NCBI GenBank assembly: GCA_039545355.1
Contig: BCJJ01000007.1
Location: 1,426,001-1,490,000 of the forward strand
Reading direction: 5' to 3'
Origin: Trichosporon coremiiforme
Taxonomy: Eukaryota; Basidiomycota; Tremellomycetes; Trichosporonales; Trichosporonaceae
Length of the DNA stretch: 64,000 bases
A program made the translations under genes and the position numbers. The notes below the pieces were generated by a model. It was not told the origin of the DNA, made no database searches, and was given only the letters and a program-made list of their open reading frames with translations. Positions 42,207-63,455 of this stretch are shown here, piece by piece; position 1 is the stretch's first letter, and each line of letters starts with the position of its first letter.

Positions 42207-43792
42207 GAGATGCCACAGGGCCGCGGGGCAGAGAGCGGGACAGAGCCGGGGTGAGCGGAGTAGCAGAGTAACAGCGTAGAGGGAGACTGTAGAAGTGTAG
42301 ATCCAGAGTTTAGCCAGATGTATCCATTCCTTCCGTGTGTGCGGTGAGATGCGCTCGGCGCCCGATACTTATGTCTCGACTGCAGACGGCCGCAGGCTGG
42401 ACTAACGCCCATCACCGCGCCGACGCGCCGAGAAGACTAGGGAAACGTTGGGTCCACACGAGTGGAAGGAGGCGGGTGCCAGTGCCGACTCCGCTGCCCG
42501 CTAGTGCTTTAGTCCCAAGCACATTCGCTGCTTCCTTCCCCCGGATGCTTGCAACTTGGCGGATCGCGGACGCAGATGGTAGCCCTCCACTAACACCCTA
42601 CAACAACAGAGTGCGCGAAGTGCTCGTTTCCAGATCCGCCGAAAACTGCGGGGATAGAACCCAGGTCTGTCGGAGACCCGGCGTCTGATGTTATTGACAC
42701 ATCGGATTGGACGGAGGGCAAGTCGTGAACGGTGCATGGCGCTGGAGGTGGTTACCCCGAGCGCCTCAAGGCCAGTCACAGAGGATGGATATCGCATCAC
42801 CAGATAATCACCCGCGATCATGCCGGGCAGATAAGCTTTCAATCGTTTCACTAGATTTAGGAAGAGCCCACTTCTCCGTCTGCTCCGTACATAGCGTACC
42901 CTCACGCAAGCAGACACGCTCATCCGTGTGTGTGTGTGGGTGTGTGTGGAGGCGGGCACGCCAAGTGGACGGACACTTCACAGTTGATCGACGATCAGAG
43001 TGGAGCACCGTAGTCGTTGGAGACTGAGTGAGTCGCCTTTGTTGGAACCCTCCCTCTGCCTGGCAATACATGATCGTCCGTCTGCATTTCGCTGGGACGG
43101 TTACGAGAACGAATAAGGTTCAACACCCAAACACACTCCGCATCCTTCATCCGTTCTACCGGGGTACAGGCACTGCCGTGCACCTGTGCGTCGGTCTCAC
43201 ATCTGTCACGCAGGATGCCGTCGGTCTTGCAGTCGGCGTTGACGTGGAACGAGACATTGTTGGTCCGCTGACCTCTTAGTGCAGTGAGGCCGACGGCTTC
43301 GGCTTCGTGCGGTCGGCTTCTCATAGCGCCCCTTGGCGCAAATGTACCGGAATGTCGGCATTCGTCCATGTTCGCGGGATGTCTTCGCCGTGTCTTCCAC
43401 ACTGATTCCGGACAAGTCTCTACGCGGCACCTCGCCAGCTAACAAGCAAGGCATGTAGCAGACTCGGTGCTACTCGGTGCTTGGAGCTTGCGCTTACGCA
43501 CTCCACGTGCTAGTTGTCCAAAGTGTCCGTTCCACTCAGGACCAAGTTGGCGTCAATTAAGGGCCCGGGGACTGGGTCGACTGGGAGTGCTGGAAACGCG
43601 TCATGTGCCTTGGCTGCCTTCGGTCTCGTGCGAAGATGTCGCGGACAACCATGACCACCGGGCATTGGCTTCCCGTGTCTGGACAAGTCTGTCTCCGCAC
43701 TCTCCGCTGACTCGCAACCCACTACCAACCATGCACATCCCACCTCTCTTCTTGTCCTCGCACACTCACTCATCACCACCGACTGCACCGTC
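42207..43792. other. 1.6 kb intergenic region
   Basis: No coding signal. Contains a short GT-rich tract (42926-42949). The 250 bases before the P450 ATG are CT- and CA-rich and probably its leader. Confidence 0.4.
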
Positions 43793-45502
43793 ATGACCAT
43801 CACCGGCAGCGCCGCCGCCGCGCTCGATGGGATCCCACTTGTGGGCCATGTCCTGGCCTCTTGGCCTCGAACCTCTATCACCGCGCTTATTGCCGGCGCC
43901 GTCTTCCTCGCCCTCTACGCCTACCTCTACGTGTACCGCGCCGCAACCCTGCCATTCTCCAATGTCCCCGGTCCCGAGCCCAGCTCCTTCTTCTGGGGCT
44001 CGCTCATGGAGATCATCAAGTCCCCGCCCTCGGTCATGCACGAGCAGTGGTACGCCGAATACGGGTCCACCTTCAAGTACCGCGCCATAGGAGGCGACTG
44101 GCGCTTGTGCTCGACCGACCCCGGGTTCCTGTCCTGGATGCTGTCCCACGACGATCTGTTCCCGAAGCCGCCGCACAGCCAAAAGTTCCTGTGGAAGCTG
44201 CTTGGTCCCGGTCTCGTCACGGTTGAGGGCGACCACCACGCGCGGCAGCGCCGCGTCGTCTCCCCCGCCTTCAGCACCAAGGCGCTGAAGGAACAAGTCC
44301 CAATCTTCTTCGACAAGGCAGTGGAACTCCGTGACAAGCTCCTCCTCTTCGTAGAGGGTAAAGGCGAGGAGCGGCCCTCGCTCCCGCCTGCGCCAGGAGA
44401 CGAGGAGAAGGGAGGCCGCAAGATCGACGTGATGAAGTACCTCGGCCAGATGGCCGTGGACGTCATTGGCCAAGCCGGGTTCGGGTACGACCTTGCCTCT
44501 CTCTCGGGCCACCCCAAGCCGCTGGCCGAGGCGTTCCGCCTCATGATGGGCGCTGGGCTGAACCCGGGCCCGATCCAGGTATTGAAGACCTTCCTCCCGA
44601 TTCTGTCCTTCATCCCGACCCGCGCGGACCGGATTCTCGAAGAGTCGAACGTGATCGCGCACCGCGAGGCGGCCGCCATCATTGCCGAACGCACTAGGGA
44701 AGTGCGCGCTGCAGGCGACGTCGACGAGGGCGCCTTCGGCAAGGACCTCCTCAGTATGCTGCTGAAGAGCAACATGAGCAGCGACCTTCGGCCCGACCAG
44801 AAAATGACAGACGAGGACGTCTTCGCCCAAGTCACCACCTTCATGCTGGCCGGCAACGAGACGAGTGCGACTGCTCTGACATGGATGCTCTGGCGCCTGG
44901 CTCAACACCCGGAGATGCAGCAGCGTCTCCGCGAAGAGTGTCAAGAGGTGAATGAGGGCGACTACGCTGCCGTCAACCAGCTGCCCTACCTCGAGGCTGT
45001 TGTGCGCGAGTCCCTTCGTCTCGACAGTCCCGTCCCCGCAACCCTGCGCGTGACGAAGGAGGACGTCACCGTGCCCCTCTCCAAGCCCATCCGGGGCAAG
45101 GACGGCACGCAGATGGACAGCGTGCGCCTGAAGAAGGGCACGACGGTGATGGTGCCGATCCACGTGATCAACTGGGCGTCGGACAACTGGGGCACCGATT
45201 CCAAGACGTTCAACCCCGACCGCTGGCTCAAGGAGGCGTCGCCGTGGAAGTATCAGAACCCGGGCGTGTTTGCCAACCTCATGACGTTCAACCACGGCCC
45301 GCACAACTGTATCGGGTACCGGTTCTCTATTGCTGAGATCAAGGTGACCTTGTTTGTTCTGATTAGGGCGCTCAGTTTTGAACTCCTGCCGAGCAGGCCT
45401 AAGTTTGAGATGAAGACGGGAATTGTGATGCGGCCCATGGTTGTGGGACAGGAGAAGGAGGGGCCGCAGATGCCGCTGCTCGTGAGGGCGCTCGAGGCGT
45501 AG
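43793..45502 (+). CDS. Cytochrome P450 monooxygenase
   Basis: Intronless, 569 aa, ER-anchored by an N-terminal helix (SITALIAGAVFLALYAYLYVY) followed by a Pro-rich hinge (LPFSNVPGPEP). The I-helix oxygen-binding motif is AGNETS (353-358), the K-helix ExxR is ESLR (406-409), the PERF-like segment is FNPDRW, and the heme loop is FNHGPHNCIGYRFS with the axial Cys at 506. Helix C has WxxxR-like HHARQRRVVSPAF. Similar fungal P450s act in lipid or aromatic hydroxylation, but the CYP family and substrate cannot be fixed from sequence inspection. It is not CYP51 or CYP61 by its substrate-recognition segments. The lack of introns contrasts with neighbouring housekeeping genes. Confidence 0.94.
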   Translation: MTITGSAAAALDGIPLVGHVLASWPRTSITALIAGAVFLALYAYLYVYRAATLPFSNVPGPEPSSFFWGSLMEIIKSPPSVMHEQWYAEYGSTFKYRAIGGDWRLCSTDPGFLSWMLSHDDLFPKPPHSQKFLWKLLGPGLVTVEGDHHARQRRVVSPAFSTKALKEQVPIFFDKAVELRDKLLLFVEGKGEERPSLPPAPGDEEKGGRKIDVMKYLGQMAVDVIGQAGFGYDLASLSGHPKPLAEAFRLMMGAGLNPGPIQVLKTFLPILSFIPTRADRILEESNVIAHREAAAIIAERTREVRAAGDVDEGAFGKDLLSMLLKSNMSSDLRPDQKMTDEDVFAQVTTFMLAGNETSATALTWMLWRLAQHPEMQQRLREECQEVNEGDYAAVNQLPYLEAVVRESLRLDSPVPATLRVTKEDVTVPLSKPIRGKDGTQMDSVRLKKGTTVMVPIHVINWASDNWGTDSKTFNPDRWLKEASPWKYQNPGVFANLMTFNHGPHNCIGYRFSIAEIKVTLFVLIRALSFELLPSRPKFEMKTGIVMRPMVVGQEKEGPQMPLLVRALEA

Positions 45503-47002: not shown

Positions 47003-49078
47003 TCACACCGTCCTGCCCAGACAGTCGCTGTTCTGCAGATTAAGATCCTCCGAGAGACGAAAGTCTTCTTTACAGGTAGGTGCTTGCTGTGTGGGTGTCT
47101 CAGCTTCACCCAGCGTAGTATCACTCGATTGCTGCGCTGAAGACGCCAGCGAGTCGGGCAATTTCGGCCCGAGCCGCTGCTCCGAGACGGGTGTAGACTC
47201 TCTTGCTTCCTCGGCCGTGGCATCCACAGGAGCAGCATGGGTAGCGGGGTCTTTTTCTGCCGTTGGCATGCAATGGTTTGTACGATGATCGCTGGGTACA
47301 GAATCAGCGGGTCCGTACCTCAGCCTGTACTCTTCCTTGAGGGAGGGACGGGGTTGCCTGAGAACGCCGGTGTTTGTGCCTGAGGATGCGGCGGGCTGTG
47401 ACAGTGAATGGAACCCAAAGATTCGGGCATAGGCTGCTTTCAGGGCTGGCTTAGGTGCGCCACCACGTACGGCGCCCTCAGGTTCTGTGTCCTGGGTGGG
47501 AGTGGTGGAGGATGGGCCAGCTGGGAGTCGTGCAAGGCTGCGAGCTTGGCCGGCGACAGGCTCTTCGCCGTCTCCTCGGTAAGTTGGGGGCGGGGGCAGA
47601 TGGGAGCCGGCTTCCACAGCGTCCCTCTCTTGAACGATACGTCGGCGAGCAGGCATACCCCTAGAGGTGCGAGAACGCTCAGCACTTGCTTCAGACATGA
47701 GTGGCTGCTGACTAGCCGGGGGGCGTGGTGAGCCATTAGTCGCGGTAGCGACCGCGGCGTCGACAGAGCTACGGGCTCCGGGCTGATCGTCTCCTTCCTC
47801 CAGTTTATGATGCTTGCTGTTCCTTCGACGCCAAAACAAGCATGCCGCCAGTGCAGCCAGAACCAGTGCGCCACCAATGCCGACGACCACACCAACAATG
47901 ATCGGGATCTTGGACTTCGACTGGGGAGGGCTGCCACCGGATGGCTCACTGGTGTTGGAACCAAGATTCGTCCCGTTTGCGCTGCCCTTTGCACCCTCGG
48001 CCAACAGATCTGCGAGAGTGTAGTTGCTATTGGATCAGTAAGGTCCACTTACCCTAACTCACTAGTGGAATGGATAGGTTTGCACAGCACTGATGAAGCA
48101 GTTGGAGTTATCTGTGGGACCGGGGTCTCCTACTCTCAGCATGGTGTGGACTGTGGGGTCAATCGGTATGATGAACATGCTGCAATTGGCCACATTCCTC
48201 ATCTTCCAGTGTTGCGAATAACCCTGATAGCTGTCTGGTCTCCACCAAGCGGGTTCGGGGTCTAGGGTAGCGTAACACTGAGGCAGAGGGAAGTACTCTG
48301 GCACTCCCGGTCCAAGAACTCTGATCAACGTGGTGTTGGCCGGGAGCATGTAAGACACTTCAGTCCTGTTGGATAAAGTGAGGCCGTCCTCTGAAATGCG
48401 ATAGACCGCCGGTCCCTTACCCCTTTGCCCGTTTGGGTTGTTCTTCCAGGTGGAGTTTGCGATCTTGAACGCAGAGTTCAGTTGGCCGTCCTGAACAACC
48501 TCCACGATTGTGGTCTGGGACTCTAATGTCTCCTGCGAGGGCCTGATTGTGGGTCATTGGCTGCCATCTCACAACTTCGAAACTCACGCTTGAGATCGAA
48601 CTGGCACATCAAAGGTGAAATTGTGAAACGTGAAGTTCGAACCTCTGAACCAGTCGTTACCTGCGGGACGGTCCATTTCGACTGAATACAGGTCTAACTT
48701 GAGAGGCGAGAAGGAGCTGAGAACCGGCTCTTGTGTTTGACTGATGTTGAATACTTGGATTGTGCTGTTGGCATTTCTGAGCCAGATTTCGAATGAGCCA
48801 TCAATGGAGAGGTTGCGCATTGGCCTTCCCCATGCCACAGAGCCTCGCATCTCGTAACCGGTACCGACAAAAGTTGAATAGATGGAAGCATAGCTCATGT
48901 TTCCGTAGCTGCTATAGCCCGTGACCGGATCCCATAGCCAAGGGCCTCCATCTGGTCTGAACTCTATCATTGGGTCCATCGAGTCGAGAGTGAAGCGGAC
49001 GGTGTCGTTGAATTGCGCGAGAGTAGACCACATTGCCAAGTGCAAAGTGGCCACTGTAACGAGAACGAGACGAAACAT
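47003..49078 (-). CDS. Paralogue A: single-pass membrane protein with PPxY tail
   Basis: Exons 49078-48588, 48542-48063, 48026-47003; introns 45 and 36 nt, both phase 2; 664 aa. Signal peptide MFRLVLVTVATLHLAMWSTLAQ, then ectodomain module 1 (FNDTVRFTLDSMDPMIEF, later FVGTGYEMRG, ending FDVPVRSQ at the exon border). Module 2 has LPANTTLIRVLGPG, QCYATLDPEPAWW, FIIPIDPTVHTMLRVG and CFISAVQTYPFH at the second border. Many N-x-S/T sites are present. A Gly/Ser/Asn stalk leads to TM 364-388 (IPIIVGVVVGIGGALVLAAL) and a WRRR stop-transfer. The tail has RRRIVQERDA, then PPTY at 470-473, and two Tyr motifs, PALKAAYARIFGF and PSLKEEYRLRYGP. Function unknown; a surface receptor or ubiquitin-ligase adaptor is plausible. 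It is closest to paralogue C. Confidence 0.85.
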
Positions 49079-49625
49079 GTTGCAAGGAGGTCCAAAAAGC
49101 GAGTGCAGGCAGTACGAAGGCGTTCATGTGCGTTAGAAGGAGCGCGGTATTTGCGTGGTCTCGTTACTCGGCCGCTTAAGTTCTGTTTTACACAGTCACT
49201 TGAAGCTACTGCGAAGAATCTTGTGAGGTATCTTCATTATCACCGCGCAATCGCGCAGCCTTTACGCAAACTCAAAAGCAAAGCTCCTCTCCTCTGCGGT
49301 AGCAAACCACTCTGAGTCTTCGCCGCTATGTCCAACAAGCGCGACGGTCATCGAAGCTCGCCCGTGGGGACTCAAAGCTTAGACGGCGGACGCTTCCTCG
49401 TACCTCAGAGAGTACTAAGCAGGTACTTCTAGGCGAAGGTTTCTCTGCAGCACACTGCTGCTTGAATGCAACCCAAGGCAACCGCATGCATCCCTCTGCG
49501 CAAGGCCCGGCACAGCTGTGCACCAGCTTTGCATTCAGCCTACATCTGTTTGTCCAATGCCTCCCAACCCCGCTTCCAATGTCAACATCATTCACAGCCT
49601 AACCGTCACATGAGCGCTGAGGCCG
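49079..49625. other. Spacer between paralogues A and B
   Basis: About 550 bases holding the promoter of A (minus strand) and the 3' flank of B. The spacers A-B, B-C and C-D are all about 550-580 bases, which fits tandem duplication. No other feature seen. Confidence 0.45.
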
Positions 49626-51383
49626 TCAAGGTCCGATAAGGCGAGCATACTCTCTCTTGAGCGCGGACGGCTCAGTGACACATCGCCTGTCCTCCTCATT
49701 CGTAGGAGGGGCCGGTGCCCCCCGAATTGCAAGATCGCTGGAAGACCTAGATAGTGCTAGCTGCTGGCCAGGCAATAGGGCTGGCGAGTGCAAGGACTCT
49801 GTCGATGTCATGTCCCAGTTTTCCCGGTACTGGGGAGGTAGAAACTCGACGATCTCTGAGCTCTCATCGTCATGGCTAAGTCTCCCCATCGGGCCGTCGA
49901 AGATGCTCGTAGAGTCGCTTGATGATGCTTCTTGAGCTGCTGCGTCAACCCGGTCGCGCTGTAGTACTCTGGAGCGAACTATTTCACTCCCTGATGCGCT
50001 GAAACGGTCACGGTCCACGGTGTCGGTCGGCGGCGAGTGGTGATGTTGTCGATTTTGCTTTCGCCATCGTCGGAACCACCGGATTCCCAAGCTGAACAGG
50101 ACTAGGGCAGCTACACCTCCAACAGTTCCTCCTGCAATCACGGAAGTGGCAGCGCGGACTGTGCTGTGTTGCCTGCCCGCCGGTGCCGCTTCCTCTGGGC
50201 TGTTGGGAGCCGGAGTGCTGCCAGTTAGTGTCGAAATAGGTGGTGTACTGACTGAAAAAACGGGTAACTCCTCACTCCGTTGATGCGACATTTGTTCTCG
50301 CTGAGGAAGCCGCCCACCTTGACCGTGTACTCCACCGTTGGGTCGACAGGCAGCATAAACAGTGTCTTGTTTGCCAAATTCTGCGGCGTGGCGGCGAGAT
50401 TGGCTTCCGGGAACGTGCCATTGAACCACCATGACGGCTTGGGAGTCAGGGTGGCGAAACAGGAACTGTTGGTTCCATACTCCCCGAGAACTTCAACTAA
50501 AGTGGTGTTGCGGGGAACTTTGTAAGCGACTGAAGAGGTAACTAAGTCCAGGTATCCTTTGCCCGCAGAGAATGTGGCCTGTAAGATCGAGGGTACAGCT
50601 GATGATTCGTACCCCCGCCATACTTTCAGCTCCTGCAGAACCCCCTGGTTTGGCTCTACTGTGAAAGCAGGGTTGGGGTCTGAGCCTTGAAGCGGCGTTG
50701 ACGAAGGTCGCTTGCTCGCGAAGCAGGTCGAAATCTGGCCTGCTCGTCAGCGGATGAACTTGAGAGCTGGACACTCACACCTGCGTGCGAATTGGGATTT
50801 GCACGGTAGCATTATAAATGACCACAGAGGAGGTGTTGGGAAACGCCGCTTCGACCTTGTAGACCGAAAGACCGAGACCGCTCCAAGAGCCCAGGCTGTC
50901 TTCTTCATGACTCTCGAACTCCTGGACGAGCTTCTGTGCATTTGTGGGTATGTATACCGTGTTACGAGTGACCGCGTTCCCGGGGTTTGTCGGGTTTGTC
51001 TCACTGCTGCTCCCGAACGCGCCGTGAAGATTGTAGCCCACTCCTACGAAGCTCAGTGCGATTCTCGGTTGTGCGGCAAACTGCCCCGCCGGAAGCGGTA
51101 ACGTTCTCAGCGTGCCCGTGTTGTTGTCGCGGGTGAAGTCATCCGACACCGCAGCCATCATTCCCGACCAAGCATCAAGTGTAATGTTTACAGTTGTGTT
51201 GAACGGAAGCGACGAATCTTCCGGAATCTGAGACGCAATAACGGTGGATGGAAGAGGCTTTTCATCGCCTTGTGTCGGGAATGGCGAGCTTTGGAACGAC
51301 GTCGGACCGGGTGTGGGCGAAAACGCAGGAGCTGCAGGCTCCGAGTTGGAAGTAGTAGCAGATGCGGAGCTTGTGGTGGACAT
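49626..51383 (-). CDS. Paralogue B: membrane protein with PPxY tail, altered splice junction
   Basis: Exons 51383-50781, 50734-50253, 50217-49626 give an intact 558-aa frame. There is no signal peptide; the N terminus is Ser/Thr/Pro-rich (~60 residues) before FNTTVNITLDAWSGMM. Module 2 has VPRNTTLVEVLGEYG, CFATLTPKPSWW, MLPVDPTVEYTVKVG and CRINGVRSYPFF. TM lies near GTVGGVAALVLFSLGIRWF. The tail has SSEIVEFLPPQYRENW and ends exactly at one Tyr motif, SALKREYARLIGP. The first intron is odd: the junction equivalent to other paralogues (exon 1 to 50779, exon 2 from 50739) gives the homologous PDFDLLREQATF but then runs out of frame. Using the neighbouring donor (CAG|GTGTGAGT) and an acceptor 5 bases on keeps the frame open. 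It may therefore be functional with a changed loop, or a frameshifted pseudogene. Confidence 0.7.
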
Positions 51384-51933
51384 CGTCTTGAACACACTCT
51401 GAAATGGTGAGAGTAGATGTGGTCAAACACTGTCGAATGGAACAAAGAGGACCATGCCCAATAGCTAAGCGAGGCTTCTCGGTGAGGGGCCAGATTCACG
51501 CGCTGACGGATTCAGACAGGAGCGTGTTATGTAGACAGGTGTTGTCAATGGGAGGGAGTGGGGTCAGCTGGGCTGCAGCAAAACACGCCTCGAGCGGGAG
51601 AGTCCCTCATCATCCATCCTTCGGTGAGGGATCCTCGGATGGCACTGCCGCTGCGGGTGCGTCAGCGCTGATGACGAGGCAGCATGCCAAAATCTTTAAG
51701 GGCGAACCATCACTTTACCGCCTCCAGGCCCGAGTTCTCACGACCTCGGCCCACTTCAGCTGTTGAAGCTGCGATACAGTTGCGGTCTTTAGCAAATGAC
51801 CGTTCACCGGGGATGCGAGGCACTTAACCGAAATCACATCACTCGATAACTGCTCTGAAAAAGGCATTGGGTCGGGCAATCTCGGTCTGAGCCGCCGTTC
51901 CGAGTCCGGTGTACACTCCTTTGCTTCCTCGTA
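51384..51933. other. Spacer between B and C, with remnant of C's former tail
   Basis: The right end (~51822-51933, minus strand) continues in frame after the stop of C and reads YEEAKECTPDSERRLRPRLP, matching the tail of A (EEARESTPVSEQRLGPKLPD). It is therefore decayed coding sequence. A TTTCAG just before the ATG of B could be an acceptor of an unseen upstream exon. The rest shows no feature. Confidence 0.6.
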
Positions 51934-53715
51934 TCAGGACTTCACGTCGTCACCCCTCGCCACTATCGGTGGAGGCTGGTCTTGCTCAATTACTCGCTTA
52001 TACTCTGCGAGCAATCTTCCATCTGGTCCTTGTGCCGATGTCTCCGCGGATTCTTCCTGTATGTCTCTGCTTGGACGGCCGAGAGTAGGTGTCACCGCCT
52101 GGGGCATGCCAAGCCAAGTCCCTCGGTAGCTTGGAGGCGCGGGGTAGCCCGCACCGTACATTGCGTCCTGCTCCTGAACCACGCGACGCCTTCTCGGGGC
52201 GGGGGCCGCGGCCGTGTTGTGGGTGGCAGGTGATAGCGACGGGTCCGATCCGCCTTGACGAGATGTCGACTGCAACGAAGTGTCCTCACTGCCGGCCGAG
52301 GTAGCTGGCACCAGTGGTTGCTCTTTCTCGCCGGACGCTGCGTGGCACCCCCTAGTGGTACGGCGCCGGAAGTACCACGCAGCGAGCACTATCAACGCGA
52401 GCGCTCCCACAACTCCCACAACCGCGCCGACGATGATGCCAGTCTTGTTGCCCTTCCTCGCCGACACGAGGTTGTTCGGGATACCTGAGTCGATGGTGGT
52501 ACGATTGTCGTCTCCCGCGGATGCACCGTCACCGCCTGTCACGGATGTGCCGTTGCCGACAGCGGCTTTGTCAGATTCCGCAACCATGTTGGCCAACGTG
52601 TAGTTGCTGACCAGTCAGCATCGTTAAACCGTCTGAACAGCTCTGCACCTCACAAGTAAAAAGGGTAAGTCCGGAAACCGCCGACAAGGCATTGCGAATC
52701 GGGATTCTGCGGCCCAAGTCGAAGCGTGAACTTGATGGTTGGATCGAGCGGCAGCAGAAACATGGTGCGGTTCGCGGCATATTGGAGCTTGTACGAAGAC
52801 GACAGAGGGAAGTTCCCAGGTTTCCACCAGGAGGGAGGCGGGTCGAGGGCTGCGTAGCAATTCGCAGAGTAGTTCCAGTCATCGACTTCCAGTGTGGGGC
52901 CGAGCACCCGGAGCAAAGTCGTGTTTGCGGGTACGGGGTAGGAGAGTTCGGTCATGTTTTGCAGGACGATAGAGGCATTCACAACCGCCGGCGACGACAT
53001 TGCCGACTGCGACTCATTCAGCCGTGCCCACTCCGGCTGGTCGTCGATCTTTCTCTGCTGAGCCATTAGGCTAAGCTCCTGCACTTTGGTTGATGGCCCG
53101 AAGCTCAACCCCGCGGCCACATCACCGTTGTAGGTGGCCATATAGTCTGTGGCCTGCAATTCGAGGTCTTTTGACGATGGCCTGGCCGTGTTAATTTCAT
53201 AGCACTGCTCAAGTGCGCACTCACGCTTGTGAGCGTATAGGGAGCTCGAGGGATAAGTTGTGAAATCTCACCCTCACATTGTGCGCATGGCGCACCACAA
53301 GCTCATAAGCTGCAAGCTCCAGCCCCGACATCGCACCGAGGTACGTGCCGTTTCTACCGCCAACATCCAGTTTCCTCACGGCATTGCTGTCTTCCGAGAG
53401 AGCGTCGGGCTGGTTTTGCAACTTGACGGTGTTGTTTGCGACCTCTCCTCCAGGCTCAATTGGGTTTTCTGCAGTACCGCCGGCCTGGTAGCCGGTCGCA
53501 ACAAAGCGACATGAGAAGTATCCCGGAGAATCCTGAGAGCGGAAGCCACTCGATGGCTCCAGATCCCACTGCCATGCTTGGTTCTCGTAACTGTCGAACT
53601 GCGCCATGGGATCCAACGCCGTGACTGCGACGGAGAACGTGCTGTTGAATTGTCCTGCGGAGATGGGGAGTAGGACAAGCCACGCCGCCACCGACTGCCA
53701 GCAATGGCGGATCAT
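51934..53715 (-). CDS. Paralogue C: membrane protein with PPxY tail, C-terminally truncated
   Basis: Exons 53715-53225, 53181-52654, 52606-51934; introns 43 and 47 nt, phase 2; 563 aa. Exon 1 has exactly the same length (491 nt) as in A. Signal peptide MIRHCWQSVAAWLVLLPISAG, then FNSTFSVAVTALDPMAQF, CRFVATGYQAGG and LELPIRSQ at the exon border. Module 2 has VPANTTLLRVLGPT, CYAALDPPPSWW, LLPLDPTIKFTLRLG and CLVGGFRTYPFY. After FNYTLANMVAE comes the stalk, then TM near TGIIVGAVVGVVGALALIVL. The tail has RRRRVVQEQDA, APPSYRGTW and one degenerate Tyr motif, LLAEYKRVIEQ. The stop TGA (51936-51934) is followed by ~20 in-frame codons still similar to A, so this tail is recently shortened. ATG 53715 was chosen over upstream ATGs because it opens the signal peptide. 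Confidence 0.85.
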
Positions 53716-54297
53716 CCCTCTTCCTGGCTGCAAGACGCGCGTATGTCCTTTGTGTGGATGGAACGTGAGATTGACTTCAAACGAGTTGATAGAAGTACGA
53801 ACCGGAGACATCGAGGACCCAGGGAACGCGCCCATCCTTCCGTGAGCAGCTCGGTCTGTGGGGTCGCAAGGAGCACAGGATATGCGGGTTCCTCTAGAGA
53901 AAGGTCAGAAAGGTGACGGAAGGCTTGAACCTTAAGTTTCAGGACACTCAAGGCACAATCGGCTTTGATGCCCGCTGCTGTCCCAACCCCTGAAACGCTC
54001 CATCCATGGGAGCCATGGAGCGTTTTGGGAAGGTACAACTGACAGGTGGCCGTGCAGTGTCGGGAGAGCGCGAGGGGTACAGAGCATTTGTCACCTTCGG
54101 CTTGTTTGGCTGCCCACCGGAAAATGCCAACAATATATCTAATGGGCTTTCTCGTGAAGGGCCGACGCTGGATCACTATGAAGGTACAAAGCTTAGGGTG
54201 CCCACCTCGACTATGCGCCACAGCAAACAACGGGGAGGGCTGATGGCGTGTTGTTCTAGGGTGCATTGCCGCGCAGACGCGGTACTTCGTAGACTGC
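53716..54297. other. Spacer between paralogues C and D
   Basis: About 580 bases with the promoter of C and the 3' flank of D. No coding signal or repeat seen. Confidence 0.45.
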
Positions 54298-56283
54298 TCA
54301 CTCCTTTGCGGCAGCCGAGCGACAGCCGGCAGGCTGATAATCGAATGCTCTCTTGTAGTCATTCTGTAGGTGACCTGAACTGCTTTGCTGTCCTGAGCTA
54401 CTGGCCTGCTTCAGCCGCTCGGCAGCAGTTGCGTCCTCGCTTCCCACACCAAAGGCTCTTCGATAGGATGCTTTCAGTGGTCTCGGACCCGCGGGTGTGG
54501 GAAGCGGCCTGCGACTGAATGCTCGATCGTAGTCTTGCTTCAGTTCGGGTCGAGGCGGAAGTTGGCGATACTCCTGTTTAAGTGCCGGTTCGCCCGAAGT
54601 ACCGTTCGAGTCAGCCGGGTCTGATCCGCTTCCATCCACCTCTCGCGCAAGGCGATGTGATGGAGCTTCATCTCGCCAAGCAGAGAAGTATTGAGGTGGC
54701 AGGAACTCGACAATCTCGCTCCCGTTGTCCTCTTCGAGTCCACGGACAGGGCTCATGTCTCCGGTAGCGGGATCGTCCTCGGGCGACGGGGAGGGAGAAG
54801 AGTCACTGTCGATGTTTCCGCTGTCCTCGGTAGACGCTACCGCGTCGGTCTTCTCATGTGTGTACGGTTCCGACTGCAGGTGCTTGGAGAGATCATGACG
54901 TTTCGAATGATGCCTACACCAACTCCAGAGCGCGAGCCCCAAAAAGAGCAGTCCGCAGACAACTCCAACGACCACCCCTACAACCACTGGCGTATGGCTG
55001 GTTCTTCCCTTCTTAGTACCGGTGCCAGTGTCGGTTGCACCGCCTACATCTGTCGGTGGATTGGTGTCGTTGCGTACTTCCGCAGTAGCGTTGCGATCGG
55101 TGGCAGTGCTGTTGAGGAAGCTGTAGTCACTGTGGGATTAGCAATGCACACCAGTCATGCGTACAAATGAAACGGGTACGTGCGAATTCCGCTGATGGGG
55201 CAAGTCACATTCTGGGTGCCCCAATACGCAGCGTGAAGTCGATGGTGGGATCAATCGGGAGGATGAACATGGTTCTATTGCTCCGTCTGAAGTTCTTGAC
55301 CGATAATGAGGTGGGGACGAGGCCGTTCCACCACGATGGTTTGGGATCAAATGTCGCGTAGCAGGTGCTGCGCCCCTGCCACTCATTGTCGTCACCGACA
55401 GGCCCAAAGACCTCAATGAGGGTTGTGTTCTGCGGTACCTTGTACACCGCCTCGGTGGCGTTCCCGATCAGGAGGTAGTTATCGATGATTCTGTGCGGGG
55501 GTGGCCCGGTGGCCGCGAAGGTGTCGTTTGGCACAATTTGACCATTGGCGATCTCGCCAATAAGGAGTAACTCCTCCGAAATCGAACAGGGTTCGAAGCT
55601 GAGATCGGAAGTAGTGTTTGAGCCTTGGACGACGTCGAAGTAGCGAGACTGGGTCCGGAGGTGCTCGAAATTCGGACTGTGGTCAGCACACACACTTTCT
55701 TCAATTGAGGTCCATACGCTTGGGTCCGAATCGGAATCTCGAACGTTGTATTGAAAAAGACCGCGTCTGTGGTTGCCTCTAGCTCCACTACGGGGAAGTA
55801 GGTAGACAGGTCGAGATTAGACAAGGCTCCTAACCCCTCTGTCCCATTAACCTGCACCGAACGCAGGGGCTTTATCTTTCCAAGAGGGTCCTCAGCAGGC
55901 AGTATAGTTCTAAGTCGGACGGTTGCAGGGGGAGCGGTGACGTCTGCAGATCCTGTTCCGGGGTGCTGACGAGCAACTCCTTGGAGGCTGAAACCAGTGC
56001 CCACAAACACGAATGGAAGAGAGGGACCGGACGTATCCGGTGTTTCTGGGTCCATGACATACTCGCGATACCCAGTATCTAAATCGAAAGTCCAGGATTC
56101 GCCATACTGATCCATCTGTATCATTGGCGACGTAGAATCGAGGGTGATGTTGACGGTGCTGTTGAATGCCTTGACAGCATCAGGGTTGGGGACGCCAAAC
56201 TTCAAGTCATTGAGCGAGGGATTGGCCTTCCTCTCGCAGCCCACGGCCTGACACCATGTCAGCGATGAGTTTGTAGCGTTCAT
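54298..56283 (-). pseudogene. Paralogue D: membrane protein with PPxY tail, frameshifted
   Basis: Exons 56283-55718, 55676-55165, 55129-54298; introns 41 and 35 nt. Module 1 has FNSTVNITLDSTSPMI, FVGTGFSLQG and FEIPIRTQ; module 2 has VPQNTTLIEVFGPVG, CYATFDPKPSWW and ILPIDPTIDFTLRIG. Directly after this the frame breaks: at the GGGG on the minus strand (55219-55222) the reading frame hits TGA, while the homologous ending TCPISGIRTYPFH continues in another frame (one more G or two fewer would restore it). The third exon is intact: TM near VVVGVVVGVVCGLLFLGLAL, tail NGSEIVEFLPPQYFSAW and four Tyr motifs, EPALKQEYRQL, PELKQDYDRAF, RPLKASYRRAFGVG and HLQNDYKRAFDY. No signal peptide is seen; starts at 56283 (MNATNSSLTW) or 56424 are possible. 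It is a recent pseudogene or a sequencing error in a homopolymer. Confidence 0.75.
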
Positions 56284-57726
56284 CGCCCTGTAGTTGAACA
56301 GTCGGCAACCCACAAGGCTACTGGCGGGAGTCGTGGTGGTGTGAAGAGGAAGAAGGGGGGGGGGGATGAGGAGTTCTGTGTCCTTAGTGCTGATCACTGA
56401 AAGGCTGTTCGAGTTATACCCCATGCGCGGCCTGCCTCATCGACCATGCAGCATGTCGTGTTCTGTGAGGCCGTGGTGAGGCGTTTGGCAGTTACGGAAT
56501 TGGTCATGGATCTGTCTAGCCCGACACTTCCGCACCTCTCGCACTCAGCCGACCAGCCGAATGGTATCACGAGGTCGCAGTGCCAGGTGTCAGGCCCAAA
56601 CAGTGAGGGTATCAGTGATCTAGAAGTCCATCCAAGCTGCAATTCATGGTGCCCTATCCGGTCCGAATGCCTGGAGCGATGCCAGGTACGCACAGCCCGA
56701 CCCTGTATCTCCCCGCTTCCATAATCAGGGGAGCTGCCACCCTGTTTGGACGCTCCCGCCAATCGGTCGGAGGAGGTGTAGGAGCCATGACATCCCCGGT
56801 GTTGGCAATGGCTGCGGGGATCCCCGACGTAGCTGAAGGGCAACCTTTTCCCAATGATGTGGAGAGACAGCACGTGGTTATCTCCTCAGCAACAGTGGGT
56901 ATCGTAGTCGCGGGGATCGATGCTCGGGCCCTTTCTCGCTCGGGAGTGTTGACATATCGTTGCTCCCTTGCAGCCCTGTACTTAAATGCGTCGCTACAGC
57001 CTGCAGCTCACTTCAACCACTTCTTTTGGCCCTCCTCCCCTGAATCCGGGGGCTGGTTTGTGCTAGGACGAGTTTCAGAAGAATCTGTGCTGAAGACCAT
57101 CTTGTGCTCCATACGAAGCGACTCATGGACATCGCTAGTGACAGCGTCGCTATGTGGCGAGCCCGTGCTGGGAAACCTCGTGACGTCGCCAAATGGACGC
57201 GAGCCAGCAGATATTGTGCTCAGCGGAGAATCGACGGCCCGTTCGTAAGCCTCTTCAGTAGTGGGCAAGGCTGGGTGAGCTCAACATCCTCATCAAGTCA
57301 CATGCTGACGATTACCAGGTTTGACGTGGGTGCCGCAAGAGGCAAGAGCAGGAGAAGCCAGTGCACTTGTGCCTTCAACAGAGGTGAGAGCGGTCAGATC
57401 AGTTGCGCGACGAACCGCGTCTGCTTAGAGGAGCACCAGGCTTGCAGGCGGGCTATCGAACCTTAACGCCTCTCGTGTATCAAACCCTGAGTTGCATCCC
57501 CTCCCAAGCGAGCCCGATTCAAGTGCTGCAAGAATGACAGCTTCTACATCTTTGCATCGTGCGTATGCGACGTGGAGGTAATGAAAGAGTGTATGCATTA
57601 GGGAAACTCACCAAGATGTGAATTGCAAAGGGACGGTGAACCACGATTGCAGGTAGACCAACCTAAACCTGCCTCATAGCTTTGGACACCCCTGGAGAGC
57701 AACGAATGCTACCGGCGGCAAAGCGT
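56284..57726. other. 1.4 kb gap in the cluster with a possible decayed member
   Basis: Nearly three times as long as the other spacers. On the minus strand, 57268-57008 is an open segment beginning LPTTEEAYERAVDSP, weakly like the Tyr motif of the family tails, ending at a GTGAGC donor. About 60 bases before it lies a Leu-rich stretch, HWLLLLLPLAAP, like a signal peptide or TM helix but without ATG. An 11-G run sits at 56355-56365. This may be the remains of a seventh paralogue, but no intact gene can be drawn. Confidence 0.35.
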
Positions 57727-59892
57727 TCAGATGCCTTGCAGTCCGTGCACCTTGTTGGGCCGTCGTGCCGGTGAATCGGACGCCGGTCCAAACTCAAACG
57801 CCCTCTTGTAATCCTCCGGCAGCGGCCCGGTCGATGATACCTGCACCGGCGGAGAGGGGAACGCCTCCTTGTATTCCTGCACGAGTGGCCGGCTGGGTGC
57901 CGGTGTCTCTGGCGTATCGAAGCGGCGCTTGTACCCGCTCTCCAGCGGTCTAGGGCCGGCAGGTGTAGCGGTGCGGCTTCGACCGGAACTTGATCCCGCG
58001 CCCGGTCCAGAACTTGATCCCGCGCCCGGTCCAGCGCTTGAACCGGCCCCAGAGACGGCGGCAGAGGGTGCGCCGAAGGCCCGTGCATACTCCGCCTTCA
58101 GGGGCGGGTTCTCGGCGGACGCTCTTTCGGAGGTAGAGGACATCTGCTTGTCTAAGGCGAGGGATTGGGGGTTGGGCTCGCCTGGCGCCGAGGACGAGCT
58201 TGATGGCCGACCTGGGGACTCGGACGGTGGGATCCTTGGCGGGACCGATGAGCCGGAGGGTCCCTGCTGCCATGCCTCTCGGTAGCGCGGGGGCAGGTAC
58301 TCGTACACTTCTTCTGCGTCCTCCTCCTGCACCAGATGGCGGACGGGAGATCGGCGTCCTCTAGCAGCCGCAGCCACCGGTGTTTCCGAAGCACCTCCAG
58401 GAGGCGTCTCGTTGCCCTCAGTGCCCGACTCTTCGGGTAGACTACCCTTCTGAATATCCTGGCCACTGCCTCGCTCGCTGTACGGCTGGGCAAGAAGCGT
58501 CTCCTCCTGCTTCCGCTGCTGGTTCCGCTTGCGGCGCCAGAGCCAGAACGCAAGCCCAAGAACGAGAAGGCCGCCGACTACGCCGACCACGACTCCGACA
58601 ATGACACCTGTCTTGTTCGACTTGCTGGACCCCGTGGCATCACCCGTCGACGCTGCACCAGTGCCACTGTCACCTGTTGCGTCCGTGCCGTTGGTACTGT
58701 CTATACTCAGAGGCGCATAATTTTTGGATGTCAGCGAGTTCATTAAAGAAAGTTTTGACTCACAAATGGAACGGATATGTCCGGAGCGCGCTGATAGAGC
58801 ACGAGTTCTCCTGTCCAAAGGAGCCAACACGGAGAGTGTAGCGGATGTTTGGCGGAAGCGGGAGCATGAAAACAGTTTGGTCCGTCGCGTTGATCATCTT
58901 CTTGGCCGAAGACAACGGAAAGTTTGTCCCATTCCACCATGGCGGCCGCGGGTCAAGCGTAGCATAGCACTGGCTCTGCCCCACCCAGTTTGAATAGGTA
59001 CCAACGGGTCCCAAGACTTCGACAAGCGATGTGTTCTTAGGCAGCGTGTACACGAGCTCGGTGCTGTTGAAGAGGAGCACGTGGCTGTTCTTAATCACAC
59101 TGTACATGGCTCCCTTGAACGGTCGCTCGAATGTCGCTTTCCATTGTAGCAGAGTGGTCATCTCCTTCAGCTCGCTGAGCACTGAACATGTCTCGCAGCC
59201 CACTCGCGGGTTCAGCTTCTGGCCCTCCACGACGGTGAGCGTCGTCGCCTGGCTCTGAAGAGATGTGAAGTCCTCGCTGAATGTCAGCTGATGAAGTGTG
59301 GTGCGGTTACTCACGCTTGCGTCGTGATGGGAATGTCGAACGTGATGTCGTAGAACGTGAGGTCTGCGCCTGGGAGGAAAGGGTTCTCGATTTTGTACGC
59401 GGCCAGAGGCAAGTCCCCAATGCTTCCCATACTGCCCCCGTTCTGCAGCTGTTCCTCCTTGAAGCAGTCGCCCGTCCGTTGCGTAGGATAGCCGAGTCTG
59501 GTCATGCCGATGGTGGTCCCCCACGTGCTGGGCAAACCCGGCCCGAATGCGGCCCTGCCGTTGATCGAGTACGCGGTGCCCACAAACCAAGCGTTCCACA
59601 TTCCGCTATGCGGGGCTGCCGGGCTCCGGCGCGCACTGGTGTCCGTATCGTATCGGAATAAAGACGAGCTGTCGAGGTCGACCATGGCCGACGTCGAGTT
59701 CACAGTGAACTTGATGGTCGAGTTGAAGGCGACGGGGGATCCCTGGTCTGCTCCCTCATCTTGGGAGATTGCGTTCCCATCTGCTGAGCCCGTCGCGGTG
59801 GCTGATGGAGGCTTGAGCGGGACCGAGGTCGATGTAGAGGAGCCAGGCCCTTCGAAGATGGAGAATGGAGACGATTCAATTGCCGAGGACAT
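57727..59892 (-). CDS. Paralogue E: membrane protein with PPxY tail and four Tyr motifs
   Basis: Exons 59892-59315, 59276-58764, 58705-57727; introns 38 and 58 nt, phase 2; 689 aa (an alternative acceptor 9 bases on, at 58696, is also in frame). There is no signal peptide; the N terminus is Ser/Thr-rich (MSSAIESSPFSIFEGPG), then FNSTIKFTVNSTSAMVDL, WFVGTAYSING and FDIPITTQ. Module 2 has LPKNTSLVEVLGPVG, CYATLDPRPPWW, MLPLPPNIRYTLRVG and CSISALRTYPFH. TM near TGVIVGVVVGVVGGLLVLGL with WRRKR after it. The tail is the longest: RHLVQEEDAEEVYEYLPPRY then REAW, and four Tyr motifs, PPLKAEYARAFG, RPLESGYKRRFDTP, RPLVQEYKEAFPSP and PLPEDYKRAFEFG. A 24-bp repeat codes a Gly/Ser/Pro spacer between motifs 1 and 2. 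It is the best-preserved member. Confidence 0.85.
57986..58033. repeat. 24-bp tandem duplication inside paralogue E tail
   Basis: Two perfect adjacent copies of a 24-base unit (57986-58009 and 58010-58033) followed by a degenerate third. On the minus strand each codes an 8-residue Gly/Pro/Ala/Ser spacer (GPGAGSSS type). Perfect identity means recent expansion. Confidence 0.85.
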
Positions 59893-61724
59893 GGCTGAGC
59901 GAGTCGGCTAGCGATGGAGAGGTGTTGTTGCTCAGCAGAGCTAGCCTAGTAGGCTTTTTGGCGCGAGTGTCGAGATGGTAGGATGTCGAAAGCGAACATG
60001 GTAGCATGTCTAGTGTGGGGCTCTACGGGTAAGTCAGTCGCTGGCGGTCTCTGGTCTTGGCGGCCGACTTTGGCAACGTGCTGCGACCTCTGGGTTGTGC
60101 AGGCGAGCAGAGGGAGGCAACACTTTTCGCGCGAGCAGCGGTCAAGTGCTGTCCTCCTGACATTGCTCACTTTCTCAGAGTGTGGTTGGTCAGGGGAGAG
60201 CCAGGAACGGTCCTCATTCTGCGCTCGTGGGTTGCGTGTGTCGCCGTCCACCCATTGACAGCAACTCCTCTGTGCGCTAGTCGTTGTAGATCTGCAGATC
60301 AAGCCACACGTTTGCCGGATAGGGTCTCTACTTAAGGCTCGCCTTACATGAAGCTGGTCACGCAGAACAGCCGGGACATGTGCGACGCCAGCAACGGAGG
60401 CCCTTGGAGGTGTTTCAGGCCTTAACCTTCCTCCGAGAACCCTGAGCTCGATCCACTTGCGAACGGCCAACGTTCCTCTGCTGCTTGGAAAGCTGGAAGG
60501 CCAACTCAAGTGGCGGATCCGACCCAAAGCTGTGAAGTCAAGGCTATAAGCTTATCAAAGCTGCGATCGATCCAAACTCTGCCTTATCAACTACTCGCAG
60601 TGAGTGAGTAGTTCATCAATGCGAACGGCTCTCCTCCCTTCCCCCCCCTTCGCGGTGGTAACGTAACAGAGTCGGAACGCTCGCCGAAGACGGCAACTGT
60701 GCCGCGCTCACCATGTGGATCAACTGAATTGCGACACAAAGAGATGCCGTCAATTTGACTCGAAGTGCACAATCTCGCACACGCCGTCTGAACGGCTGTG
60801 GCCATCGAGCCATGCCCACTCCTTCCAGGGGTCGGCTCTGTTTACCGTGACTGTGGGATGGGTGCATTCAACCCTCCCCTTTCGCCCCGGGTGCGCTCTC
60901 ACAGCGAGTGATGGGCGTCATATGCATGACCTGACCTGTCACTTAAGCTCCAAGCTTTACCATCTGAGTGGCGGAAATGGGCCCCGTTGCTCAAACGTTC
61001 TCCTACATGAACTCGTCGGGAGTCAGGGACCCGTGGTTATCCCGGCGATTATTGCGAAGTGCTGTCTTGGCAACCATGGATCGACGCCATGTTTCGGACG
61101 ATCCTCGCCCTGAAAAGCTCCTGTAGCATGCATTCTTTAATCGGCACTTCATTCTGTGGATCTGTGTCCCGTTGGGATGGCTCCATGGATAGCTGAAGCG
61201 CAGCTATAAGAAAGTTCGGACGGACGCTAGAGCGCGGTCTTACAACGGTGCCCGCCCCGGTGCCCGTGATCAAAAGGGAAGACGCATGCTGAGATACAGT
61301 TGCGCCAGAACTACAAGGGCACTGATTTGTGCAGGCCGTAGAGTCCATCATGGGGACCAACCTGACGCTCCACAAGCTTTTGAAAGCTGGTCCCTTGAGC
61401 GCTTGCAGAGACGCCGTCGCTGACTGCCCCTCGTGGTCGATGCAACACACCAGCTGCTGGTCTCAACTCAAACAGCATCTTTACAAGTTGCGAACCGCCA
61501 GACGGTTTCACTCTCGATCCCCAGTCCCCGTCAACCCTGCACATCGCACAACGGACCTGCAACAGATGATCCACGATGCCTTCCCACCACCACAACTGAC
61601 TGTGCAGGGCAAATGATCATGGGGTTGAGCACCACAGCCCACCTGCTTTATTACTCATCACATCATTGACAGCAAGTCCCGTCCTTCCTGAGCAAGACCT
61701 TCCAAGTGTTCCCCGGAGATTGAC
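59893..61724. other. Divergent region between paralogues E and F
   Basis: 1.8 kb between the two head-to-head genes. No frame here has splice signals or similarity to the family that I can see. It must hold both promoters. The inversion break that separated F from A-E probably lies here. Confidence 0.4.
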
Positions 61725-63455
61725 ATGAGTGGCTTGATCAAATTACTGCTGTCCGCTCTTTGCACCGGTGGATTGGCGGCTAAGTTCAACCACACCATCG
61801 AGGTCACGCTTGACGAGCTCTCGCCCATGTTGGCATTCAAGGACTGGCGCCATGCCCATCGATACGATGAGTCGGGCCAATTCATCTCACAGCGATATGG
61901 CCCAGTCACCGATTCGGAGCCACACACCGTGGACTTGCTCTTCAGCTTCGTTGGCTGCGGCCTGTCCTTGGAGGGCCGTATTCAGGGTGATGGTGGTGAC
62001 TACGAGCACCGACCCAGTATCGGGCTCCTGAACATCACCGGCGACCACCCGACGCAAGACATCAACTGGAGCAATAGCACCACTGAGCTCGCGCGGGCGA
62101 CACTCGGCGATGATCCTCAGCTCGTCACTGGCAATATCTCCGTCGATGCAGTGCAGGGACAGCTCTCATTCGACTCCTTGACCATTGCCGTACCAGTCGT
62201 TGGCGGCTCGTAAGTGTGAGCAGAGCCAAATTCGCTAACCTCAGCAACACCACGCTCCTGGACATGCTTTCGCACTCCGAGGCAAACCCTGTGGCGAAGG
62301 AGGCGGTTGACTCCGGTGACTCGCTCAGTATCTCCGCTTTCTCGTCGAAGGGCTTATTGGCTGATCTGCCCGAGATCTTCAGCAACGCATCCGGGTCAGT
62401 TCGGAAGAATGTGACGGATTTCCGCTTCTCGGCCGAAGGTGTCCTGGAGCTGCGCAACAGGACAGAGCTGAACTACACCGCCCCAGAGACCACGACGCTG
62501 ATCGAGGTCCTCGGGCCCGTTCAACGGGCGCCCGACGACAGCGCAAACTCATTTAAGTGCTACGCCATCCTGATCCCTCAGCCACCCTGGTGGTCCAACG
62601 CTGGAGTACCCTTGGCACACCTCGACAAACCCAGAAACATAACGCAGCAAACTCTGTTCCTCCTTCCAGTCGACCCAGACCAGAAGTACACGCTCATTGT
62701 TGGGCCATCCGAGAATGCGACGTGCTTAGTCAACCACGTCCGGTCGTACCTGCTGCCTCGGTAAGTCACAGGATCCAAACAGTTGCTGAGCCCCCAGAGA
62801 TGCAGCCGATAGTGCCAGGAACAGCACCTCGCAGCCTCCCGGCAACACTACAGAGATCGATAGCGACTCCGGCCACTCCGGCGCTCATCGCCCCTGGGCC
62901 GCCGCAACCGTTGGCATTGCAATCGGCTCAGCCATTTCAGGCGCCTTGGCTGCTGTAATGGCGACACTCTGGTTCCTCCGCAAACGCCTTACGTCTCCAC
63001 ACCCTTCCAACCAGCAGTCAGCACGTCTCTCCGACAGCGACCACCACTTCCAGGTCATCACCCCGTACATCCCCTCGTCGGGCTCCCAGAAACCAGACAT
63101 CACCCCGAACAGAGTCTCAGATTCCCTCCCCTTGTCGTATCGATCAGATGAGGAGATTCCCTCGCCAGAACCAACCTTCGCGGCAGTGGGCGCACGCTCA
63201 GTGCTCGGATCGGCGAAAGCGGTGCAGCAAACACCTGATCGCACGTCCCAACCCACACCCAAAACCGGCTCTCAAACCACGCCCCAAGCCACGCCTCAGG
63301 TCTCGACCCCAGGCTCGTACCCTACGCTCTCACCCGAAGGCCCGGGCGCAAAGTCCAGATCCCCCACTGCAGATAGACGCGAACACAAACGAGTTTCCCG
63401 TCCCCGCCCGCCGCCAATGTACAACCCGGAGTGGAAAGAGCAGCGAGAGCACTAA
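61725..63455 (+). CDS. Paralogue F: inverted, divergent family member with PPxY tail
   Basis: Exons 61725-62209, 62245-62760, 62798-63455; introns 35 and 37 nt, both phase 2 as in A-E; 552 aa. Signal peptide MSGLIKLLLSALCTGGLAA, then FNHTIEVTLDELSPMLAF, FSFVGCGLSLEG and LTIAVPVVGGS at the exon border. Module 2 has APETTTLIEVLGPV, CYAILIPQPPWW, LLPVDPDQKYTLIVG and CLVNHVRSYLLP. The stalk has N-x-S/T sites, then TM near VGIAIGSAISGALAAVMATL and FLRKR. The tail has a Thr/Pro/Gln-rich run (TPKTGSQTTPQATPQ) and ends with RPPPMYNPEWKEQREH, so the PPxYxxxW motif is nearly C-terminal. The Tyr motif of A-E is absent. The first half of exon 3 only reads as a TM segment when spliced at 62797. Confidence 0.85.

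What the first reader, a model, noticed from the sequence alone, without database searches (positions are those of the whole stretch)
47003..63455. Cluster of six paralogous receptor-like membrane proteins that all carry a cytoplasmic PPxY motif
Seen: A-F share a two-module ectodomain (FNxTVxxTLDxxxPM..., then NTTLxEVLGP, CYATLDPxPxWW, LPxDPTxxxTLRxG, CxISxxRTYPF), one TM helix, a basic stop-transfer and a long tail. Each tail has one clear PPxY: PPTYRGDG (A), PPQYRENW (B), PPSYRGTW (C), PPQYFSAW (D), PPRYREAW (E), PPMYNPEW (F), so five of six fit PPxYxxxW. Known: PPxY is the ligand of WW domains in Nedd4/Rsp5 ubiquitin ligases. Inference: a family of surface proteins whose turnover or signalling runs through Rsp5. 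The ectodomain pattern (SPMI...W...FVGTGxxLxG) resembles basidiomycete surface proteins with a lectin-like beta-sandwich, so ligand binding is possible. I know of no named family with this layout.
Basis: partly seen in the sequence, partly recalled or inferred. Interest (0 to 1): 0.93.

Follow-up and report, generated by a model that had tools for sequence, protein, structure and literature searches.

The report
Fungal sugar-binding-like receptors with ubiquitin-ligase tails
A fungus, likely a relative of Trichosporon, carries about thirty related gene copies for predicted membrane proteins whose outer part is predicted to fold like sugar-binding modules and whose tails nearly all keep the same short PPxY word, which likely docks the ubiquitin ligase Rsp5 and would set how long each protein stays on the cell surface.

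Summary
Genes A-F share a two-module ectodomain, a predicted transmembrane helix and one PPxY per tail (5 of 6 PPxYxxxW). The window's own assembly gave 33 matches, 15 of them within 84 kb of one contig. Of 30 matches delivered as loci, 27 carry PPxY downstream; 21 of 26 one-frame tails do, against 1.2 in shuffles. The core is LPPxYxxxW, often after an acidic EEDA stretch; W stands at Y+4 in 22 of 28 blocks (background 1.2%). The block is better kept than the rest of the tail in the two near-identical pairs examined. The pattern recurs elsewhere in the genome, partly in distant relatives and partly in proteins (L075, L076) where no relation was found. AlphaFold models of both modules match carbohydrate-binding jelly-roll folds at middling scores. 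The genome encodes an Rsp5 with three WW domains, so Rsp5 docking is the likely reading; binding, ubiquitination and turnover are untested. Weak points: B, D and E show no signal peptide, D's frame breaks in module 2, and only two outside relatives were found. Verdict: new variant of a known kind (membrane proteins with extended PY tails).

The parts
47003..49078 (-). Gene A: signal peptide, module 1 (exon 49078-48588), module 2 (48542-48063), TM and tail (48026-47003)
47567..47590 (-). A tail PPTYRGDG, preceded by RRRIVQERDAVEAGSHLPP
47315..47443 (-). A: two LKxxY repeats (LKAAYARIF, LKEEYRLRY)
49626..51383 (-). Gene B: Ser/Thr/Pro-rich N-terminus without visible signal peptide, two modules, TM, tail
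49815..49838 (-). B tail PPQYRENW
49635..49661 (-). B: LKREYARLI repeat (found with the looser pattern, not with the strict one)
51934..53715 (-). Gene C: signal peptide, two modules, TM, tail
52114..52137 (-). C tail PPSYRGTW, preceded by RRVVQEQDAMYGAGYPA
54298..56424 (-). Gene D: two modules, TM and tail; the module-2 frame ends early at 55205, so this copy may be broken
54676..54699 (-). D tail PPQYFSAW
54343..54543 (-). D: LKQDYDRAF, LKASYRRAF, LQNDYKRAF repeats
57727..59892 (-). Gene E: Ser/Thr-rich N-terminus without visible signal peptide, two modules, TM, long tail
58270..58293 (-). E tail PPRYREAW, preceded by VRHLVQEEDAEEVYEYL
57796..58101 (-). E: four repeats (LKAEYARAF, LESGYKRRF, LVQEYKEAF, LPEDYKRAF)
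61725..63455 (+). Gene F: signal peptide, two modules, TM, tail
63411..63434 (+). F tail PPMYNPEW, close to the C-terminus, without the acidic EEDA stretch

Best explanation
These are paralogous proteins with two predicted carbohydrate-binding-like modules, one predicted transmembrane helix and a tail whose conserved LPPxYxxxW word is likely read by the WW domains of the fungus's own Rsp5, which would ubiquitinate the tail and send the protein to endocytosis and the vacuole. Shown by sequence: exon frames, family size, motif conservation, a hydrophobic TM-like helix with a basic flank, and an Rsp5 gene with three WW domains. Predicted: the folds of both modules, the splice sites and the type I topology. 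Inferred: WW binding, with the +4 Trp as an added contact; ubiquitination; control of surface dwell time; a glycan or cell-wall ligand. Diversified outer modules over a constant inner dock would give many specificities one shared removal switch.
Against: No binding, ubiquitination, expression or localisation data. L010 has LPTY and L038 LPMY instead of PPxY, and L029 shows none within 1.5 kb. B, D and E lack a visible signal peptide. D and some other copies have broken frames. Tails hold 3.0% lysine, which I take as low. Only two outside relatives were found; a distant in-genome member found none. Not all WW proteins of the genome were read: L083-L085 gave no readable WW. The fold matches are to a common jelly roll at middling Z (the tool warns that 7-8 is usual without a clear match), and ligand residues were not checked.
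Confidence: 0.62

Rival explanations
1. The proteins are Rsp5 adaptors rather than its clients: the tail would recruit Rsp5 to other membrane proteins, chosen by the ectodomain or TM, as Rcr1/2, Ear1/Ssh4 and ENTREP do.
For: Known membrane PY proteins act this way (PMC2810449, passages; PMC5578492, passages; PMC8811627, abstract). Tails hold 3.0% lysine.
Against: The large outer modules, diversified in about 30 copies, look like ligand-facing parts (inference). Ear1 and Ssh4 carry SPRY domains; Pfam gave none in the 18 exon pieces of A-F.
Confidence: 0.22
2. The PPxYxxxW word is read by something other than Rsp5 (another WW protein or an unknown domain) and serves signalling or scaffolding, not turnover.
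For: The genome has further WW domains (15 WW matches at E<=0.01, 6 of them in the two Rsp5 copies), not all read here. The acidic EEDA stretch and the +4 Trp go beyond the minimal PY motif.
Against: Of the WW domains read, only Rsp5's three carry the DHNTxTTTW stretch that I recall as typical of PPxY binders; the others read are a short WW protein that I take by eye for Pin1/Ess1 (L045/L046) and L082.
Confidence: 0.12
3. The tail motif is a passive inheritance: all these proteins descend from one ancestor and the motif has no strong function.
For: Family members share ancestry; several of the outside motif carriers turn out to be distant relatives too (L079, L036, L057); some copies are degenerate (L038, D).
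Against: The block is better kept than the surrounding tail in both pairs compared, persists where the rest of the tail differs, and occurs in L075/L076, in which no relation to either module was found.
Confidence: 0.04

Closest known systems
Yeast membrane PY proteins bound by Rsp5 (Sna3, Rcr1/Rcr2, Ear1/Ssh4, Bsd2)
   Same: Membrane protein with cytosolic PPxY (or variant) and a three-WW Rsp5 in the same genome; Sna3 needs its PPAY for Rsp5 binding and sorting (PMC2171029, passages).
   Different: Large two-module CBM-like ectodomain, about 30 paralogs, a frequent W at Y+4 and LKxEYxRAF repeats. Ear1/Ssh4 have SPRY domains instead (PMC2810449, passages). Sequence relation to these proteins was not tested directly.
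Commissureless and PRRG proteins (extended PY motif GLPSYDEAL / GLPSYEQAV)
   Same: Single-TM proteins whose PY core is followed by acidic residues and a hydrophobic one at Y+4; ligands of Nedd4 WW domains (PMC5578492, passages). Here LPPxY-R-E-A-W.
   Different: Trp at +4 and PP rather than LP; no Gla domain reported by Pfam; fungal.
ENTREP/FAM189A2
   Same: Transmembrane protein with PPxY that binds and is ubiquitinated by a Nedd4-family ligase and steers receptor endocytosis (PMC8811627, abstract and outline).
   Different: An activator of ITCH for another receptor; no sequence comparison made here.
Galactose-binding-like carbohydrate-binding modules (CBM29, CBM35, CBM36, CBM6) and malectin-like receptor ectodomains (ANXUR2)
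   Different: About 10% sequence identity, no Pfam match over cut-off, no kinase in the tails; ligand-binding residues not examined.
Trichosporon asahii A1Q2_04655 (hypothetical protein)
   Same: 34% identity over 92% of C; same two modules, TM, YLPPRYREAW and LKxxY motifs.
   Different: Its record seems to start inside the tail of a preceding paralog (an LQQDYKRVF repeat lies before the signal peptide), so it is probably a fused gene model.

Membership tests
Group I WW-domain (PY motif) ligand of Rsp5/Nedd4 | PPxY or LPxY core | tested here: met
   One PPxY in each of A-F; PPxY in 27 of 30 family loci.
Group I WW-domain (PY motif) ligand of Rsp5/Nedd4 | Motif on the cytosolic side | tested here: inconclusive
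   It follows a TM helix and a basic stretch, but B, D and E lack a visible signal peptide; topology is predicted only.
Group I WW-domain (PY motif) ligand of Rsp5/Nedd4 | Motif conserved above its surroundings | tested here: met
   Two pairs compared: block 28/28 against 116/163 and 25/28 against 117/182; shuffles.
Group I WW-domain (PY motif) ligand of Rsp5/Nedd4 | Same genome encodes a Nedd4-type ligase with WW domains | tested here: met
   L003/L004: three WW plus HECT.
Group I WW-domain (PY motif) ligand of Rsp5/Nedd4 | Physical binding to the WW domain | not testable with these tools
   No binding assay or complex prediction available.
Ear1/Ssh4 Rsp5 adaptors | SPRY domain | tested here: not met
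   No SPRY match at E<=1 in the 18 exon pieces of A-F (10, 8).
Commissureless/PRRG extended PY motif | PY core followed by an acidic residue and a hydrophobic residue at Y+4 | tested here: met
   E at Y+2 in 17 of 28 and W at Y+4 in 22 of 28 blocks, compared with the motif as printed in PMC5578492. This is a pattern, not homology.
PRRG proteins | Gla domain | tested here: not met
   No Gla match at E<=1 in the 18 exon pieces of A-F.
Galactose-binding-like (CBM-type) jelly roll | Fold | tested here: met
Galactose-binding-like (CBM-type) jelly roll | Carbohydrate-binding residues and activity | not tested
   No ligand site mapped.
Malectin-like receptor kinases (ANXUR/FERONIA type) | Cytosolic kinase domain | tested here: not met
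   No kinase match at E<=1 in the six tails (A, E, F; B, C, D).

The most novel reading that the evidence does not exclude
This fungus uses a common cytoplasmic docking word, DA(G/E)-x(n)-(L/M/V)PPxYxxxW, on many single-pass surface proteins, some with outer parts in which no relation to the present family was found. Rsp5 would thus control a whole class of receptor-like proteins through one built-in extended PY motif, without arrestin adaptors, and a tandem array of about fifteen CBM-like receptors has diversified on top of this one switch, with LKxEYxRAF repeats as a second, unknown docking site.
Probability: 0.36. Interest if true: 0.72.

Novelty: new variant of a known kind. Interest (0 to 1): 0.55.

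Why it matters
In budding yeast the plasma-membrane transporters studied reach Rsp5 through separate adaptors such as arrestins (PMC2810449, passages). A large receptor-like family, and other membrane proteins of the same genome, carrying their own extended PY motif would mean that this fungus wires Rsp5 directly into surface proteins. That gives a simple testable switch for how its surface proteome is turned over. The expanded outer modules are a candidate set of glycan or cell-wall sensors in an order that holds saprotrophs and opportunistic human pathogens (PMC12820176, abstract start in the listing). The LKxEYxRAF repeat is an unexplained linear motif that recurs far above chance in these tails.

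Tried and rejected
Pfam for all 18 exon pieces of A-F: nothing over cut-off, only weak rows, mostly TM or low complexity; P0001's best is a sub-threshold Mid2 row (21.3 bits, cut-off 23.2). Relatives: one search (gene C) found two proteins among 7997 scored candidates; one search (P0001, residues 120-714) found only itself; one search (L036 spliced model, residues 24-345) found none at E<=1 among 5990 candidates. Coverage or sensitivity may be the reason, so absence in other species is not claimed. LKxxY as a genome-wide DNA word: 51 hits against 57 for the reversed control, so not enriched genome-wide; 11 of those hits lie at family tails (10 on C7, 1 on C14). A signal-peptide exon upstream of B, D and E was sought and not found. 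The tree of module 2 (25 of the 30 loci plus P0001; five loci with a stop or a short match dropped) is poorly resolved, with 9 of 23 inner branches open; in its 12-row group around L019-L033 no LK repeat was counted, but L019, L029 and L033 had no one-frame tail to count in. Literature: ten searches listed no title on a basidiomycete family of this layout; none was exhaustive. Mixed alignments of exons and whole proteins (A2, A3) misplaced fragments and were not used for folding. The probability of the novel case was lowered from 0.40 to 0.36 for that.
Full report
What was asked. I tested the observation and the inference separately.

Gene structure. Stop-to-stop frames and chosen GT-AG introns of 36-119 nt and phase 2 give three-exon models for A, B, C, E and F: exon 1 = signal region plus module 1, exon 2 = module 2, exon 3 = TM plus tail. 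D has a like exon 1 and tail, but its module-2 frame ends at 55205, before the CxISxxRTYPF end that the others have. A, C and F start with a plain signal peptide directly before the FNxT of module 1. B, D and E instead have a longer N-terminus, Ser/Thr/Pro-rich in B and E, and no signal exon that I could find. Relatives outside the window (L010-L014, L025, L031) show a hydrophobic leader at that place by eye, so the family as a whole looks like type I membrane proteins, which remains a prediction.

Size of the family. The window lies at C7:1426001-1490000 of a 42.0 Mb, 134-contig assembly in which the HECT and several WW genes come in pairs. C's module 2 gives 33 matches at E<=1, two of them pieces of one place; E's gives 33 and F's 27 at E<=0.1. 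Fifteen lie on C7 between 1,474 and 1,558 kb (E<=1e-6; a sixteenth, weak, at 1,564 kb, and more module-like frames in L066 near 1,566 kb); six of the fifteen are A-F. The rest are on C1, C3, C6, C9, C12, C13, C14 and C17; one search adds two weak places on C9 (40 kb) and C10. The nearest named protein is Trichosporon asahii A1Q2_04655, 34% identical over 92% of C. The paired genes and the size would fit a hybrid Trichosporon-type genome, as described for T. coremiiforme and T. ovoides (PMC6642101, passages); the species is not known to me.

The tail word. Of the 30 matches delivered as loci, 26 have a one-frame TM plus tail. Of these, 21 have PPxY, exactly once each (shuffle mean 1.2, maximum 5), and 18 have W or F three or four residues after the Y (shuffle mean 0.06). 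In six more loci the PPxY lies after a stop or in another frame downstream (L019, L026, L032, L033, L036, L037), making 27 of 30. The other three are L010 (LPTY), L038 (LPMY) and L029 (none within 1.5 kb; a PPRYKEAW tail, L077, lies 2.3 kb downstream). Over 28 blocks, L precedes PPxY in 22, E stands at Y+2 in 17 and W at Y+4 in 22, against a background W of 1.2% (the 28 include both members of two near-identical pairs and seven blocks typed). Many blocks begin with an acidic (V/I)xQEEDA-like stretch. I compared two near-identical pairs on different contigs, taken as homeologs: between L011 and L013 the block is 28/28 identical and the rest of the tail 116/163; between L023 and L024, 25/28 and 117/182. 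P0001 and P0002 carry YLPPRYREAW and YLPPRYREW.

Elsewhere in the genome. A DNA pattern for D-A, up to 30 bases, then PPxYxxxW gave 37 hits (GAC) and 23 (GAT), against 4 and 4 for the reversed pattern; with PPxF in place of PPxY it gave 9, against 8 reversed. The PPxY hits are 53 distinct sites; 39 have DA in frame with no stop, against 3 of the 9 PPxF hits; 17 fall in the family regions as I drew them and 36 outside (one of the 17, C7:1550548, has a twin on C3 that I counted outside). Among the outside sites are near-identical motifs on different contigs (DAGTIVVPPSYDPAW on C8 and C19; DAMDPPAYNPEW on C13 and C15; DAGPLxEEQTLPPLYDPxW on C2 and C4). For outside loci that I could read, the motif follows a TM-like helix in the same frame in L049, L061, L062, L072, L074, L075, L076 and L079, with one also in L048 that I did not study, and the helix is in the preceding frame in L056, L071 and L073. 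L050 has a TM-like stretch by eye that the scan did not pass; none was seen in L078 and L080. L051-L055 and L068-L070 have no such helix before the motif in the same frame and some may be chance. How far these are unrelated proteins is only partly known: profiles of the two modules find module 2 in L036 (8.1e-7), L057 (6.7e-6) and L079 (1.9e-6), weakly in L078 (0.0021) and L074 (0.0059), and not at E<1 in L075, L076, L061, L062 or L048. So part of the outside set is distant family, and L075/L076, with a Ser/Thr-rich outer part and no Pfam match over cut-off, are the best case for the word under another ectodomain.

The likely reader. The genome has an Rsp5 orthologue in two copies with three WW domains and a HECT domain; the best PDB match is yeast RSP5, 3olm, E=1.3e-236. 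Its WW domains carry DHNTxTTTW, which I recall as typical for PPxY binders; group I WW domains, Rsp5's three among them, bind PPxY (PMC1557994, passages). Of the other WW domains I read two: a short WW protein that I take by eye for Pin1/Ess1 (L045/L046) and L082, which lacks that stretch. C7:257958, C43 and C8 were not readable in the short stretches fetched. Rsp5 is thus the best candidate, not the only possible one.

A second motif. Tails of A, B, D and E and of several relatives carry one to four copies of LKxEYxRAF or close variants. A strict pattern occurs 17 times in 8 of 26 tails against 0.03 in shuffles. As a DNA word it is not enriched genome-wide (51 against 57 in the reversed control). 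Its reader is unknown.

Mechanism and standing. Shown: the family, the motif and its conservation, and the Rsp5 gene. Predicted: fold, splice sites and topology. Inferred: WW docking, ubiquitination, endocytosis, ligand. The extended PY pattern is a known kind: Comm has GLPSYDEAL, with acidic residues and a hydrophobic one at Y+4 (PMC5578492, passages), and Sna3's PPAY binds Rsp5 and is needed for sorting (PMC2171029, passages). What looks new is the fungal Trp version on a tandem array of CBM-like receptor-like proteins and on further membrane proteins of the same genome. Ten literature searches (listed under Tried and rejected) brought up no description of such a family; that is not proof of absence. 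I file it as a new variant of a known kind.

Noticed in passing
47315-58101 (A, B, D, E tails): Repeated motif LKxEYxRAF or close variants, one to four copies per tail, also in T. asahii P0001 and in P0002; reader unknown.
   Followed up: partly
55138-55467 (gene D): The module-2 frame of D ends early at 55205, while its usual C-terminal end is readable in another frame; this copy may be broken.
   Followed up: partly
L010-L014 tails, P0001, P0002: A juxtamembrane motif like SEKDLYRTASWAPHN, or a close variant, is shared by a subset of tails.
   Followed up: no
L075, L076, L072, L074, L079, L049 and other pattern sites: DA(G/E)...PPxYxxxW also ends the tails of other single-TM proteins; some are distant relatives (L079), L075/L076 showed no relation.
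   Followed up: partly
C3:140-182 kb versus C7:1,474-1,566 kb (L013, L081): C3 has counterparts of some C7 tail sites and of L011, but the module-2 searches found only one family member there; L081 holds a lone LKDEYKRAF that could be a remnant of a lost copy.
   Followed up: partly
L029 / L077 (C17:15-18 kb): Module 2 and a PPRYKEAW tail lie about 2 kb further apart than in sisters; an insertion is possible.
   Followed up: no
1473-4070, 10861-12435, 30662-32239, 33712-36930, 39834-42203, 43655-45499: Of ten neighbouring reading frames scanned, six match Pfam: class I (E and Q) tRNA synthetase, Nop snoRNA-binding, DUF1996, heparinase II/III-like, AMP deaminase and cytochrome P450.
   Followed up: no
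P0001 residues 1-100: The T. asahii record seems to fuse the tail of a preceding paralog (LQQDYKRVF) to this gene, which suggests a tandem pair there too.
   Followed up: no
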